Shown here: piece after piece, positions 184-38,304 of the stretch
Layout: the number at the start of each line of letters is the position of its first letter
Numbering within the stretch: the first letter of the stretch is position 1
NCBI GenBank assembly: GCA_029261715.1
Contig: JAJDAT010000037.1
Coordinates: 1 to 64,000, forward strand
Reading direction: 5' to 3'
Source: Nitrospinia bacterium
GTDB taxonomy: Bacteria > Nitrospinota > Nitrospinia > Nitrospinales > JAJDAT01
Length of the DNA: 64,000 nt
Translations under genes and position numbers: made by a program
Notes under the pieces: model-generated
Seen by the model: only the letters and a program-made list of their open reading frames with translations
Databases searched by the model: none
What the model was told of the DNA's origin: nothing

Positions 184-274
<91 letters not shown>

Positions 275-281
275 TTACAGC

Positions 282-1442
282 TTAAATTTTTTTTGCGTTT
301 TTTATTTGGTCCTCTTTTGGTCCTTTATTAAAAATATCAATCGCATCTTCCTTCTTCTTATCGTAAGAACTTAAATACTTTTCAGTCGTGCTTAATCGAG
401 CATGCCCCATTATTTCTTTGATAGTATTTAAATCGGCCCCGCCTGCCGCAGCGTAACTTCCCCAAAAATGTCTGAACTGGTTAAAGGAATATCCTTTTAA
501 TCCTATATTTTCGAAAGCTCTTTCATAAGCTTTGGAAACAGCATTTGTTGAAGGGACACTAAAAAACGTTGCCTCTTGATCGAGGTTATGAGGTATTGCT
601 CCAATAATTTCGATAATAGCTTCAGCCATTTTAAATGAAACTAGTTTTGGTTGTCGCTGTATACCCATCGATTTGCGTAAGTTCTCAACTTTAGATTGAT
701 AAAAAGAAATTTTGTGATTTTTTCGATCAACATTTTTTTCACGAAGAAAAACAATATCTTTTAATCTCATAGAGCTATGCGCAGCTACAATTCCGATTTT
801 TAAATATTCTCTACCGTATTTAGCGGAAAATTTAACAACCTCGTCGCAAACTTTATAAACTTCTTCAAATTCTAAGGGCCTTTTGATTGTTTCATTCTGG
901 TTCTGAAGAATCATATCCTTAGTATCTCTCCAGCTTGGGTTTTGCCAATCCGGGTCAACACACTGGATAACTTCTTTCAGACATCTTAGTTCCTTAGATA
1001 ATGTAGAAGCTTTTGCTCCTTCAATTACTTTATCTCCAACTTGTTTAGGTCGTTCTCTCCAAAGTTTATACTTAACAACGGATATTGAAAAAGGATCGTT
1101 AGTAGGTTCTTTGGTAATCTGAGAAATTCTTTTACCTTTAAAAAACTTACTTAAATGCTTTTTGATTATGCCTTTGTTACGTTCGCTTGGAGAAGTTTCA
1201 AGATAAAGTTTTACCGCGTGTTCAAAATCTTTTGTATTTTTGTCGTACTCTCCTCTTTTAATGAATTCGTAAGCTTCGAAAAGTCTAGGAAGAGCTACAT
1301 CTTTATCAGAAGTATTAAGTGAAAAATGATAACGAATTATTTCTTTTTCACCGTCTTCCTTTATATGGGTGAAATAAAACCTAGCCCATAAAGTCTTTTT
1401 CTTTCCTCTTGGGTAGATGCTGTCGGATAAGTTCTTGGCCAT
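282..1442 (-). CDS. int: Tyrosine-recombinase phage integrase
   Basis: This site-specific recombinase should integrate and excise the prophage at tRNA-Glu. The start is set at 1442, because that ATG follows a good ribosome site (GAGAGGG, 5 bases away). An in-frame ATG at 1517 has none. The 386-residue product has an N-terminal arm/core-binding part with a typical sequence opening (SIYPRGKKKTLWARF) and a catalytic domain. Visible catalytic positions are Arg226 (in HSSMRLKDI), Arg324 (in NQFRHFWGS), His347 (MGHARLSTT) and the nucleophile Tyr356 (EKYLSSY). The usual His of the HxxR motif is Asn321. The gene reads towards attL and its 3' end contains part of a repeat also found beside attR. Confidence 0.95.
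   Translation of the reverse strand: MAKNLSDSIYPRGKKKTLWARFYFTHIKEDGEKEIIRYHFSLNTSDKDVALPRLFEAYEFIKRGEYDKNTKDFEHAVKLYLETSPSERNKGIIKKHLSKFFKGKRISQITKEPTNDPFSISVVKYKLWRERPKQVGDKVIEGAKASTLSKELRCLKEVIQCVDPDWQNPSWRDTKDMILQNQNETIKRPLEFEEVYKVCDEVVKFSAKYGREYLKIGIVAAHSSMRLKDIVFLREKNVDRKNHKISFYQSKVENLRKSMGIQRQPKLVSFKMAEAIIEIIGAIPHNLDQEATFFSVPSTNAVSKAYERAFENIGLKGYSFNQFRHFWGSYAAAGGADLNTIKEIMGHARLSTTEKYLSSYDKKKEDAIDIFNKGPKEDQIKNAKKI
304..329 (+). repeat. Candidate integrase arm-type sites, attL side
   Basis: This 26-bp stretch lies in the 3' end of int and matches 38097-38122 near attR with one mismatch. It contains two direct copies of TTTGGTCCT with 11-bp spacing. Similar repeats on both flanks of the att core suggest arm-type binding sites. 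The function is inferred. Confidence 0.5.
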
Positions 1443-1479
1443 GTTGTCCCTCTCAAACTGGAACAAACGACTCTTCCGA

Positions 1480-1496: not shown

Positions 1497-1529
1497 TGAG
1501 GATTTTACAGCATTCATTTAATGATTTGG

Positions 1530-1598
1530 TATAATTAAAACGTTCTTAAGTAGGGAAAATTTTTAGGAGGTCGGGGAAACTCGGCCTCTTTTTTTTTA
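1530..1598 (+). ncRNA. Candidate short RNA: TATAAT box followed by a terminator
   Basis: A perfect TATAAT (1530-1535) is followed about 30 bases later by a hairpin (GAGGTCG 1567-1573 with CGGCCTC 1582-1588) and a ten-base T run (1589-1598). No ORF fits between them. A transcript starting near 1542 would be about 55 nt. No clear -35 is visible. It sits just upstream of the two small-peptide genes, so it could be a regulator of them or just a barrier terminator. The rest of 1443-1758 shows only the untranslated leader of the first peptide gene. Confidence 0.4.
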
Positions 1599-1716
1599 TA
1601 GACAAACTGGATTAGTGTTACAATAAGAAAGCGATTAAATAGACTAGCCGTACCCATCGGTTTTGGGGAAAATCCAAAATTGAGGTTTAAAGTTAAATAA
1701 ATATTACTGCTAAGGC

Positions 1717-1753
1717 GGTTTCTTTGATTTTGGATAAAAACCCGAAAGGAACC
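1717..1753 (+). promoter_or_regulatory. SD-sequestering hairpin of peptide gene 1
   Basis: GGTTTCTTT (1717-1725) can pair with AAAGGAACC (1745-1753): 9 bp with one G-U pair. The 3' arm contains the Shine-Dalgarno sequence AAAGGA of the 21-codon ORF at 1759. Translation would therefore be blocked unless the stem opens. The same principle is seen at the second copy. Confidence 0.6.
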
Positions 1754-1758
1754 ACCAC

Positions 1759-1824
1759 ATGGAATGGATTATGCTTTTATTAGCATTTGTTCAAACCATA
1801 GTAGCGTTATGGAATTTTTTCTAG
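1759..1824 (+). CDS. 21-residue hydrophobic peptide, copy 1 (type I toxin-like)
   Basis: The product MEWIMLLLAFVQTIVALWNF(F) is almost entirely one membrane-spanning helix with no charged C-terminus. It aligns without gaps to the 23-residue peptide at 2034-2105 and shares M5, L6, L8, A9, Q12, T13, I14 and A16. AAAGGA lies 8 bases upstream of the ATG, inside a hairpin, and a strong terminator starts 18 bases after the stop. Duplication, a single transmembrane segment, a buried ribosome site and an own terminator are the hallmarks of type I toxins. I do not recognise the family. The gene is opposite in strand to int and to the helicase gene. Confidence 0.7.
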   Translation: MEWIMLLLAFVQTIVALWNFF

Positions 1825-1841
1825 AGCGTTACAAAAATTAT

Positions 1842-1870
1842 GGGGTTGGAGAAATCCAGCCCCTTTTTTT
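1842..1870 (+). terminator. Rho-independent terminator of peptide gene 1
   Basis: GGGGTTGGA (1842-1850) pairs with TCCAGCCCC (1855-1863) around GAAA, with one G-U pair, followed by seven Ts. Confidence 0.85.
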
Positions 1871-1929
1871 AGGTCTGTTGTAAACCCCTAATTAAGTTGT
1901 TAAACTAACTGTACTTATCGCGAGAATAA

Positions 1930-1947
1930 CGCATGCAATAACATGCG
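1930..1947 (+). repeat. Inverted repeat in the leader of peptide gene 2
   Basis: CGCATG (1930-1935) and CATGCG (1942-1947) flank CAATAA. It could be a 5' stabilising RNA hairpin or an operator. It ends one base before the leader ORF start codon (1949). Confidence 0.45.
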
Positions 1948-1948
1948 A

Positions 1949-2020
1949 ATGGAAATAAATCTGATGAAAACACAAATTTTTAAAAAGGGGGGAACTCCCT
2001 CTCCTGTGGACCCTCCCTAG
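1949..2020 (+). CDS. 23-codon leader ORF upstream of peptide gene 2
   Basis: An ATG at 1949 opens a frame MEINLMKTQIFKKGGTPSPV-DPP-stop. It ends inside the region that sequesters the next ribosome site: its last codons GAC-CCT-CCC-TAG cover the 5' arm (2009-2014) and the loop. A ribosome reaching this stop would melt the stem, so translation of the peptide at 2034 could be coupled to it, as mok is to hok. The Pro-Pro-stop end is a known type of slow termination context. There is no clear Shine-Dalgarno sequence, so real translation is uncertain. Confidence 0.35.
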   Translation: MEINLMKTQIFKKGGTPSPVDPP

Positions 2021-2030
2021 TAAAGGGGTC
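2009..2030 (+). promoter_or_regulatory. SD-sequestering hairpin of peptide gene 2
   Basis: GACCCT (2009-2014) pairs with GGGGTC (2025-2030), including one G-U pair. This covers most of the Shine-Dalgarno sequence AAAGGGG (2022-2028) that lies 5 bases before the ATG at 2034. Confidence 0.6.
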
Positions 2031-2033
2031 GCA

Positions 2034-2105
2034 ATGAACTTTTTCATGCTGTTCTTAGCGGTTATTCAAACGATTACGGCAATACTAAGTTTAATACTAA
2101 GATGA
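2034..2105 (+). CDS. 23-residue hydrophobic peptide, copy 2 (type I toxin-like)
   Basis: The product MNFFMLFLAVIQTITAILSL-ILR is a single hydrophobic helix ending in Arg, and is paralogous to the peptide at 1759-1824. The best ribosome site in the neighbourhood (AAAGGGG) precedes it but is held in a stem. A perfect 9-bp terminator follows 8 bases after the stop. The conserved core M-L-x-L-A-x-x-Q-T-I-x-A in two diverged copies argues that both are translated and selected. Membrane toxicity, lysis support or superinfection exclusion are possible roles. None is proven by the sequence. Confidence 0.7.
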   Translation: MNFFMLFLAVIQTITAILSLILR

Positions 2106-2112
2106 ATAATTA

Positions 2113-2144
2113 GAGCTTGGTATGTCCAACCAAGCTCTTTTTTT
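2113..2144 (+). terminator. Rho-independent terminator of peptide gene 2
   Basis: GAGCTTGGT (2113-2121) pairs perfectly with ACCAAGCTC (2129-2137), followed by seven Ts. It also lies just past the 3' end of the minus-strand helicase gene. Confidence 0.88.
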
Positions 2145-2147
2145 ATA

Positions 2148-4494: not shown

Positions 4495-4857
4495 TTAACC
4501 TACCTTTTCATATTCGAATAATGCCGGTTGGCTTTCATAACGTTTCTTTTTTCGGTCTAATCTATGATGCTCGTTATGGTCTTCTACGGTCATCAGTTTA
4601 AAATTTGATCCGTCTATAGGGTTATTGCTTGCATCATGATCTATGTGATGGATAACATGACCTTCTGGCAAAGGACCGTTCCGAAACTCCCAGATAGCAA
4701 CGTGTAAGCTCCAAGGTTTTCGCCTTCCTTCTCCTTTGTCGCTAGCGTTAGGCAGTCTTATGTAATGACCCGATTCTCTTTTTAAAAATCTCAGCCCATT
4801 AAATTCTATAGACTCATGGGGTCTTGAGACTCTGTTATAGTTTTTTCTATGTCCCAT
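4495..4857 (-). CDS. HNH endonuclease
   Basis: The 120-residue protein has an HNH core: HVIHHIDHDASNNPIDGSNF, then LMTVEDHNEHH. It belongs to the free-standing phage HNH endonucleases that often act as homing enzymes. A lone copy inside an early operon, next to another HNH-containing gene, suggests a selfish insertion. It abuts its neighbours with 1-bp overlap or less. Confidence 0.85.
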   Translation of the reverse strand: MGHRKNYNRVSRPHESIEFNGLRFLKRESGHYIRLPNASDKGEGRRKPWSLHVAIWEFRNGPLPEGHVIHHIDHDASNNPIDGSNFKLMTVEDHNEHHRLDRKKKRYESQPALFEYEKVG

Positions 4858-5405
4858 TAGAAAGGGGGTTCCTCTTCAATTTCTTCAATTGGAAACTTGA
4901 TTTTTTCTTGGTATTCTTCAGGAAAATTTAAGCATGCGTATTCATGGAATAACTCAAAGGCTTTTTTATCGTATGCTCTAGCGGCATCAGCTTCGATTTT
5001 AAAACTACCTAAATGAATACCTTCACCTCTAAAAGCAATTCTCGCTCTAAATCTATTTCCGCTGACACCTACACCTTTATATACAGAAGACCCTTTACCC
5101 GTAACCTTCTTATTAGCTCCATTTCCTAAAGCCCCGCAACGCCTTAAATTCTGTTTTCTGTTGTCGAGTTTGTTGTTATTTTTATGGTCAACCCAAAGAC
5201 CGGCAGGACAACCTATAACTTGTCGATGCATATAAATTAGAGTTGTTCCGTGGATGCTCTTTTGGCCCTTCCGAACTGCGTAACCCCCTGGAAGAAAACA
5301 CCACGAGTGTTTGTTCAGTTCCTCGAAATCTTCAGCGTCAACAATCGCGAATTTACCTTTTGTAAGCTTTATTTTTGCAACTTCAGGTTTTTTAGGCTTT
5401 GTCAT
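4857..5405 (-). CDS. HNH endonuclease with AP2 DNA-binding domain
   Basis: The N-terminal half has a HNH_3-type segment (MHRQVIGCPAGLWVDHKNN, then KLDNRKQNLRRC). The C-terminal half is an AP2/ERF domain (SSVYKGVGVSGNRFRARI to AARAYDKKAFELF). This is the classical AP2-HNH homing-endonuclease layout found in phages. The ATG at 5405 lies four bases after the upstream stop. A GTG at 5423 is the alternative and would overlap the previous gene. It is probably a second selfish element. Confidence 0.85.
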   Translation of the reverse strand: MTKPKKPEVAKIKLTKGKFAIVDAEDFEELNKHSWCFLPGGYAVRKGQKSIHGTTLIYMHRQVIGCPAGLWVDHKNNNKLDNRKQNLRRCGALGNGANKKVTGKGSSVYKGVGVSGNRFRARIAFRGEGIHLGSFKIEADAARAYDKKAFELFHEYACLNFPEEYQEKIKFPIEEIEEEPPF

Positions 5406-5409
5406 TTTT

Positions 5410-5649
5410 TTAAACAACCTCACCTTTCATAACTCTTTGCGCGTCTTCTCTAGATATCCGAATTGATCCAAAATTTTTGAACCCTATTATGTATCCGCAT
5501 TCAATAGCTCTATATATTCTTTTCTTTGCAGCATCAGTTTTTATATGCAGCTCAACGGCTAAAAACCTTGCAACTTCAGATACCGAGAAGCTTGGTTTTT
5601 CGGGCAATTTAGCTTTCGAATAATTTGGAGACATAACGGATAAATTCAT
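5410..5649 (-). CDS. Small helix-turn-helix protein
   Basis: The 79-residue protein has a MerR/excisionase-like winged-helix pattern (FSVSEVARFLAVE, AAKKRIYRAIECGYI, IRISREDAQRVM). It could be an excisionase or an early regulator. Its site within the replication operon favours a regulator or accessory DNA-binding protein. It overlaps the next gene by 4 bp. Confidence 0.65.
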   Translation of the reverse strand: MNLSVMSPNYSKAKLPEKPSFSVSEVARFLAVELHIKTDAAKKRIYRAIECGYIIGFKNFGSIRISREDAQRVMKGEVV

Positions 5650-38250: not shown

Positions 38251-38304
38251 TTCACGCCGGCGACGCGGGTTCGAATCCCGCTGGGGACGCTTTTTAACAA
38301 TGCC
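38249..38304 (+). repeat. attR: core 38249-38293 plus extension
   Basis: This is an exact copy of 218-262, and TTAACAATGCC (38294-38304) matches 264-274 after a one-base gap. It represents the 3' half of tRNA-Glu only, so it is not a tRNA gene. Confidence 0.93.

What the first reader, a model, noticed from the sequence alone, without database searches (positions are those of the whole stretch)
1759..2105. Tandem pair of paralogous 21/23-residue membrane peptides with buried ribosome sites
Two tiny plus-strand genes lie in a prophage gap between integrase and helicase. Their products align without gaps over 21 residues (shared M5, L6, L8, A9, Q12, T13, I14, A16). Each has a Shine-Dalgarno sequence in the 3' arm of a hairpin (1717-1753; 2009-2030) and its own rho-independent terminator. 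Conserved peptide plus conserved translation block in two diverged copies is hard to explain by chance and fits type I toxins. I do not know this peptide family.
Basis: partly seen in the sequence, partly recalled or inferred. Interest (0 to 1): 0.9.

Follow-up and report, generated by a model that had tools for sequence, protein, structure and literature searches.

The report
Tiny membrane peptides in a prophage
A 38-kb prophage carries two tiny, related membrane-peptide genes of 21 and 23 residues beside its integrase, the same genome has a third copy outside this prophage, and no relative was found elsewhere; they look like self-poisoning (type I toxin-like) genes, but no matching antitoxin could be shown.

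Summary
ORF1 (1759-1824) and ORF2 (2034-2105) are paralogous hydrophobic peptide genes, each with a Shine-Dalgarno (SD) and an intrinsic terminator, 275 bp apart, inside a 38-kb prophage (att repeats 237-258 and 38268-38289). A profile of the two found a third copy elsewhere in the genome (MGWIMLFLTLIQTLATLWEYF, E=1.3e-4) with the same anatomy. Codon-column shuffles (0 of 20,000) and dN/dS 0.22-0.30 say they are coding. A search by anatomy alone of 1.66 Mb gives six candidates; three are this family. No relative was found in 387 genomes, GTDB contigs, IMG/VR, phages or plasmids; no protein-library family passes its cut-off.

The "buried ribosome site" is strong only for ORF1 (top 2.7% of 75 genes), ordinary for copy 3. 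ORF1's leader has a predicted 5'-end-dependent switch (closed full-length, open near +33 to +39; 0 of 200 shuffles), recalling TisB and DinQ. Its pairing to the peptide mRNAs does not beat shuffles; it is perfectly antisense to the integrase leader.

Best reading: a new lineage-restricted family of type I-like toxins; antitoxin and toxicity unproven.

The parts
1759..1824 (+). ORF1, 21-aa membrane peptide MEWIMLLLAFVQTIVALWNFF
   Evidence: coding test; dN/dS
2034..2105 (+). ORF2, 23-aa membrane peptide MNFFMLFLAVIQTITAILSLILR
   Evidence: coding test; dN/dS
1616..1624 (+). Candidate promoter of ORF1: extended -10 TGTTACAAT; inferred transcript start about 1631, leader about 128 nt
   Evidence: 9 of 12 consensus match with TG before the -10; count not above shuffles; inference
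1657..1683 (+). Leader hairpin of ORF1, arm 1 (1657-1667) with arm 2 (1673-1683); present in the predicted closed state
   Evidence: folds of 1631-1870
1672..1735 (+). Alternative pairing, arm 2 (1672-1685) with anti-SD arm (1722-1735); frees the SD when the 5' end is near 1664-1670
   Evidence: folds and opening energies
1714..1756 (+). Hairpin holding the ORF1 SD (AAAGGA 1745-1750; stem 1717-1724 with 1746-1753)
   Evidence: opening energy against 75 genes
1842..1870 (+). Intrinsic terminator of ORF1
1879..1907 (+). Candidate promoter of ORF2: TTGTAA, 17 nt, extended -10 TGTTAAACT; inferred leader about 120 nt
   Evidence: read by eye; weak consensus, not found by the scan
2009..2030 (+). 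Hairpin holding the ORF2 SD (AAAGGGG 2022-2028)
   Evidence: opening energy not unusual
2112..2145 (+). Intrinsic terminator of ORF2
1527..1535 (+). Perfect extended -10 promoter element TGGTATAAT of the small-RNA candidate
   Evidence: only one of 34 such sites in 1.656 Mb that is followed by a terminator within 12-60 nt
1542..1597 (+). Candidate 54-nt small RNA ending in a terminator (stem 1565-1590) that resembles those of ORF1 and copy 3
   Evidence: pairing tests
282..1443 (-). Prophage integrase (start probably at 1443, behind SD GAGAGGG, rather than 1517)
   Evidence: Pfam Phage_integrase E 2.8e-12; start inferred
237..258 (+). att repeat at the 3' end of tRNA-Glu
38268..38289 (+). Second att repeat: far end of the 38-kb prophage

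Best explanation
ORF1, ORF2 and the third copy are genes for 21-23-residue single-helix inner-membrane peptides of one family. I think they work like type I toxins: each mRNA is monocistronic, with a leader that keeps translation low and its own terminator; when translation is let through, the peptides insert into the inner membrane and associate through the conserved stripe M5-A9-Q12-A16 (central Gln), disturbing membrane potential. For ORF1 the predicted gate is a 5'-end-dependent switch: in the full transcript arm 1 ties up arm 2, so the anti-SD holds the SD; loss of about 33-39 nt from the 5' end lets arm 2 capture the anti-SD and frees the SD. An RNA antitoxin is expected; the 54-nt RNA at 1542-1597 is the only candidate. 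Shown: genes, family, third copy, coding constraint, terminators, prophage setting. Predicted by computation: RNA switch, small-RNA gene. Inferred: membrane insertion, oligomerisation, toxicity, antitoxin.
For: Peptide family with a third copy. Coding constraint: 0 of 20,000 column shuffles reach the in-frame score; variable columns 12, 6, 16 of 20 at codon positions 1, 2, 3; dN/dS 0.22-0.30. Hydrophobic ORF with SD and close terminator is rare: 6 in 1.656 Mb, 3 of them these. ORF1 SD opening costs 7.0 kcal/mol, top 2.7% of genes, and the switch amplitude of 3.96 kcal/mol is reached by 0 of 200 leader shuffles on the full transcript. TisB and DinQ likewise are translated only from +42 and +44 processed mRNAs (PMC8309996; PMC3567139), and duplicated small toxin genes with a nearby sRNA are known in zorO-orzO/zorP-orzP (PMC3919570). 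Small-RNA candidate: the only one of 34 perfect extended -10 sites followed closely by a terminator.
Against: No antisense antitoxin shown: tail pairing to the ORF1, ORF2 and copy-3 mRNAs is not better than shuffles (p 0.40, 0.29, 0.99; ORF2 ribosome site alone 0.08-0.11). The peptides have almost no charge, unlike TisB, DinQ and ZorO. SD occlusion is ordinary in copy 3. The switch was weaker with a shorter 3' end (p 0.075), and the 5' ends tested were chosen after seeing the optimum. Transcript starts are inferred.
Confidence: 0.52

Rival explanations
1. The peptides are real but not toxins: small membrane regulators that bind a partner membrane protein, for example prophage superinfection exclusion, or tuning of a host transporter or respiratory complex.
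For: Almost uncharged helix with a conserved polar-small stripe suits partner binding; copy 3 lies between a 76-aa gene and an aldo/keto-reductase-like gene, not in an obvious mobile element; no antitoxin pairing.
Against: No shared neighbouring gene between the two loci that could be the partner; the ORF1 SD is unusually closed and its leader switch beats shuffles, more than a housekeeping peptide needs.
Confidence: 0.28
2. The 54-nt RNA is not an antitoxin but an antisense RNA against the integrase mRNA leader, and the peptide genes are a separate cargo.
For: It is perfectly complementary to the minus strand upstream of the integrase; the next best pairings in the prophage are -18 kcal/mol against -36 for its own complement. 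A minus-strand promoter TTGTAA, 17 nt, TATAAA (1623-1595) would start the integrase mRNA inside the RNA's region (read).
Against: The integrase promoter is a by-eye match that the scan did not report; the RNA's terminator resembles that of copy 3, far from any integrase, which ties it to the peptide family.
Confidence: 0.35
3. The units are regulatory RNAs and the short ORFs are incidental.
For: Very strong folds (ORF1 unit z -6.2; ORF2 unit z -3.1); short units with a terminator.
Against: Conservation follows the codon frame; dN/dS 0.22-0.30; the alignment has no gap over 63 nt of ORF but gaps in the flanks; three SDs.
Confidence: 0.06

Closest known systems
TisB / IstR-1 (E. coli type I toxin-antitoxin)
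   Same: Very short single-helix inner-membrane peptide, structured leader that blocks translation in the full transcript, 5' processing (+42) activates, central Gln, small RNA gene nearby (PMC8309996)
   Different: TisB is 29 aa with a charged strip D5, K12, D22, K26; these peptides are almost uncharged. No antisense stretch between the candidate RNA and the mRNAs above shuffles. No Pfam match.
DinQ / AgrB (E. coli)
   Same: Single transmembrane peptide, only the 5'-processed +44 mRNA is translated, polar patch with a Gln, small RNAs in the same intergenic region (PMC3567139)
   Different: DinQ has a charged patch (Glu17, Arg20) and AgrB has a 31-nt antisense region; neither is seen here.
ZorO-OrzO / ZorP-OrzP (E. 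coli O157:H7)
   Same: Two homologous tiny hydrophobic toxin genes in tandem (PMC3919570)
   Different: Each zor gene has its own divergent sRNA with enough pairing (17 or more nt); here one candidate RNA on the same strand and no such pairing.
Ibs / Sib and ShoB / OhsC (E. coli)
   Same: Toxins of similar size, hydrophobic and almost without charge in the helix (PMC8309996, and general knowledge)
   Different: Ibs has a cis antisense RNA over the ORF; no minus-strand promoter-like site was found across 1400-2300.
NCBIfam NF033853 (KPN_two_small)
   Same: Small membrane protein; weak profile match to ORF1 (E 0.025, 14.2 bits)
   Different: Far below its cut-off of 33 bits, and the same model gives equally weak hits in 10 of 14 control genomes: chance.

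Membership tests
Type I toxin-antitoxin system | Small hydrophobic peptide that is translated | tested here: met
   21-23 aa, Kyte-Doolittle mean 1.3-1.9; coding constraint. Translation itself not observed.
Type I toxin-antitoxin system | Antisense RNA that pairs with the toxin mRNA | tested here: not met
   The candidate 54-nt RNA pairs no better than shuffles; no minus-strand promoter-like site found over the genes. An RNA encoded elsewhere was not excluded.
Type I toxin-antitoxin system | Toxicity on overexpression, relieved by the RNA | not testable with these tools
   needs expression assays
TisB/DinQ-like 5'-processed toxin mRNA | Full-length leader blocks ribosome access, shortened leader opens it | tested here: inconclusive
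   Predicted for ORF1 only (0 of 200 shuffles; p 0.075 with shorter 3' end); not seen for ORF2 or copy 3.
TisB, Ibs, ShoB, Ldr, Hok and other curated small toxins | Match to a curated family model | tested here: not met
   No Pfam match up to E=10; PHROGs and NCBIfam only chance-level.

The most novel reading that the evidence does not exclude
A new family of uncharged 21-23-residue membrane toxins, restricted to one bacterial lineage, in which a 54-nt RNA between integrase and toxin genes controls both: antisense to the integrase leader and trans-acting on the toxin mRNAs, coupling prophage excision to toxin release through a 5'-end-dependent leader switch.
Probability: 0.12. Interest if true: 0.75.

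Novelty: new member of a known kind. Interest (0 to 1): 0.5.

Why it matters
Genes this short escape annotation; here an entire family with three copies is invisible to Pfam, PHROGs and NCBIfam. If toxic, it extends type I-like systems to an unnamed lineage (PMC12390103 counts only three phyla for type I systems before its own cyanobacterial report) and gives a nearly uncharged helix, useful for asking which features of such peptides make them toxic. The predicted leader switch and the RNA antisense to the integrase leader are directly testable.

Tried and rejected
Small-RNA antitoxin by complementarity: tested by duplex and cofold energies against shuffles, not significant. Scan of the 38-kb prophage for another target of the RNA: only its own antisense strand stands out. 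Homologues: peptide profile in 148, 64, 77 and 387 genomes (the weak extra hits L028 and L023 lie inside other reading frames and were dismissed as chance), peptide patterns in IMG/VR and GTDB contigs, degenerate DNA patterns (103 loci; those in frames under 90 aa listed, none a start-to-stop relative), tblastn in phages and plasmids (weak test at this length). Integrase relatives in IMG/VR: none. NF033853: chance. Vestigial third ORF before the terminator at 1565: the 12-codon frame there does not resemble the family. Peptide structure prediction: below the 30-aa limit. Covariance model: only three members, not informative.

Full report
Observation. ORFs and terminators recur at 274-275 bp, so the pair is a tandem duplication. 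The prophage setting is firm: the integrase carries a phage integrase domain, the 22-nt repeat GGTTCGAATCCCGCTGGGGACG at the tRNA-Glu end (237-258) recurs once in the genome, at 38268-38289, and between them lie major head, portal, tape measure and tail genes and DUF2800, Enc34-like ssDNA-binding and PolA-like genes.

A third copy. A profile from the two peptides, run over the whole genome, gave a third hit at E=1.3e-4 on another contig: MGWIMLFLTLIQTLATLWEYF, with SD AGAAAGGA, a hairpin before the start and a terminator after it, between a 76-aa gene and an aldo/keto-reductase-like gene near yidC- and mnmE-like genes (gene names by eye). The family is therefore not tied to this prophage.

Are they genes? 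In-frame similarity of the three ORFs exceeded all 20,000 column shuffles; variable columns by codon position are 12, 6 and 16 of 20. dN/dS is 0.22-0.30. A weaker substitution-replacement test on pairs did not reach significance (P 0.08-0.52), as expected at this length. A scan by anatomy alone (ATG ORF of 15-45 aa, SD, mean hydropathy at least 1.0, terminator within 50 nt) of 1.656 Mb, 31% of the genome, gave six ORFs: these three and three unrelated.

Translation block. The SD hairpins exist in both window units. Against 75 genes of the same genome, opening the SD is costly for ORF1 (7.0 kcal/mol, 2.7% of genes as high) but not for ORF2 (3.4, 28%) or copy 3 (1.5, 67%). In the ORF1 leader two repeats (1661-1675 and 1728-1742) compete for the stretch between them. 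Folding from the inferred start 1631 closes the SD; 5' ends at 1664-1670 open it; shorter leaders close it again. On the full transcript the amplitude, 3.96 kcal/mol, was not reached in 200 leader shuffles (mean 0.51); with the 3' end at 1790 the test was weaker (p 0.075). The 5' ends were chosen with the optimum known. TisB and DinQ mRNAs are active only after 5' processing at +42 and +44, so the logic has precedent.

A small RNA gene. Upstream, TGGTATAAT (1527-1535) is followed by a terminator at 1565-1590. Of 34 perfect extended -10 sites in 1.656 Mb this is the only one with a terminator 12-60 nt on, and its terminator has one close match in that sequence, behind copy 3. The predicted RNA is about 54 nt. 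It is the natural antitoxin candidate, but its 5' tail pairs with the mRNAs no better than shuffles (best -12.9 kcal/mol over the ORF2 SD, p 0.08-0.11 for that site, 0.26-0.29 for the whole mRNA). Within the prophage its one outstanding complement is the opposite strand, the probable integrase leader.

Distribution. No relative in the class (77 genomes) or 387 relatives, in GTDB contigs, IMG/VR, phages or plasmids. Short queries make each search weak on its own, but the profile scored members at 42-46 bits against 21 or less for everything else. No library family fits.

Mechanism. I favour type I-like toxins: tiny helix, tandem copies in a prophage, leader control, own terminators. Conserved M5, A9, Q12, A16 fall on one side of a helix (angles 140, 180, 120, 160 degrees), which suits helix association through a central Gln; this is inference. 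Against it: almost no charge and no antisense pairing. A non-toxic regulatory peptide is the main rival. Membership in the type I class is not claimed, because the antisense criterion was tested and not met.

Noticed in passing
1527-1597: Likely 54-nt RNA gene (perfect extended -10, then terminator), on the opposite strand to the integrase leader; a possible antisense control of integrase.
   Followed up: partly
1595-1623, minus strand: Promoter-like TTGTAA, 17 nt, TATAAA that would drive the integrase; overlaps the ORF1 promoter on the other strand.
   Followed up: no
1443: Integrase start is more likely the ATG at 1443 (SD GAGAGGG) than the longer frame from 1517.
   Followed up: no
237-38289: 38-kb tailed prophage bounded by a 22-nt repeat of the tRNA-Glu end; early genes DUF2800, Enc34 ssDNA-binding, PolA-like.
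   Followed up: partly
1931-1948: Perfect palindrome CGCATG-CAATAA-CATGCG in the leader of ORF2; could be an operator or an RNA hairpin.
   Followed up: no
L218 16561 (+): Unrelated 26-aa hydrophobic ORF with strong SD and nearby terminator (MDMNLLLWIVAVVGGTYGIGLFVWYI) in an intergenic gap.
   Followed up: no
4495-5423, minus strand: Two adjacent frames that look like HNH-type endonuclease genes in the early region (by eye; not searched).
   Followed up: no
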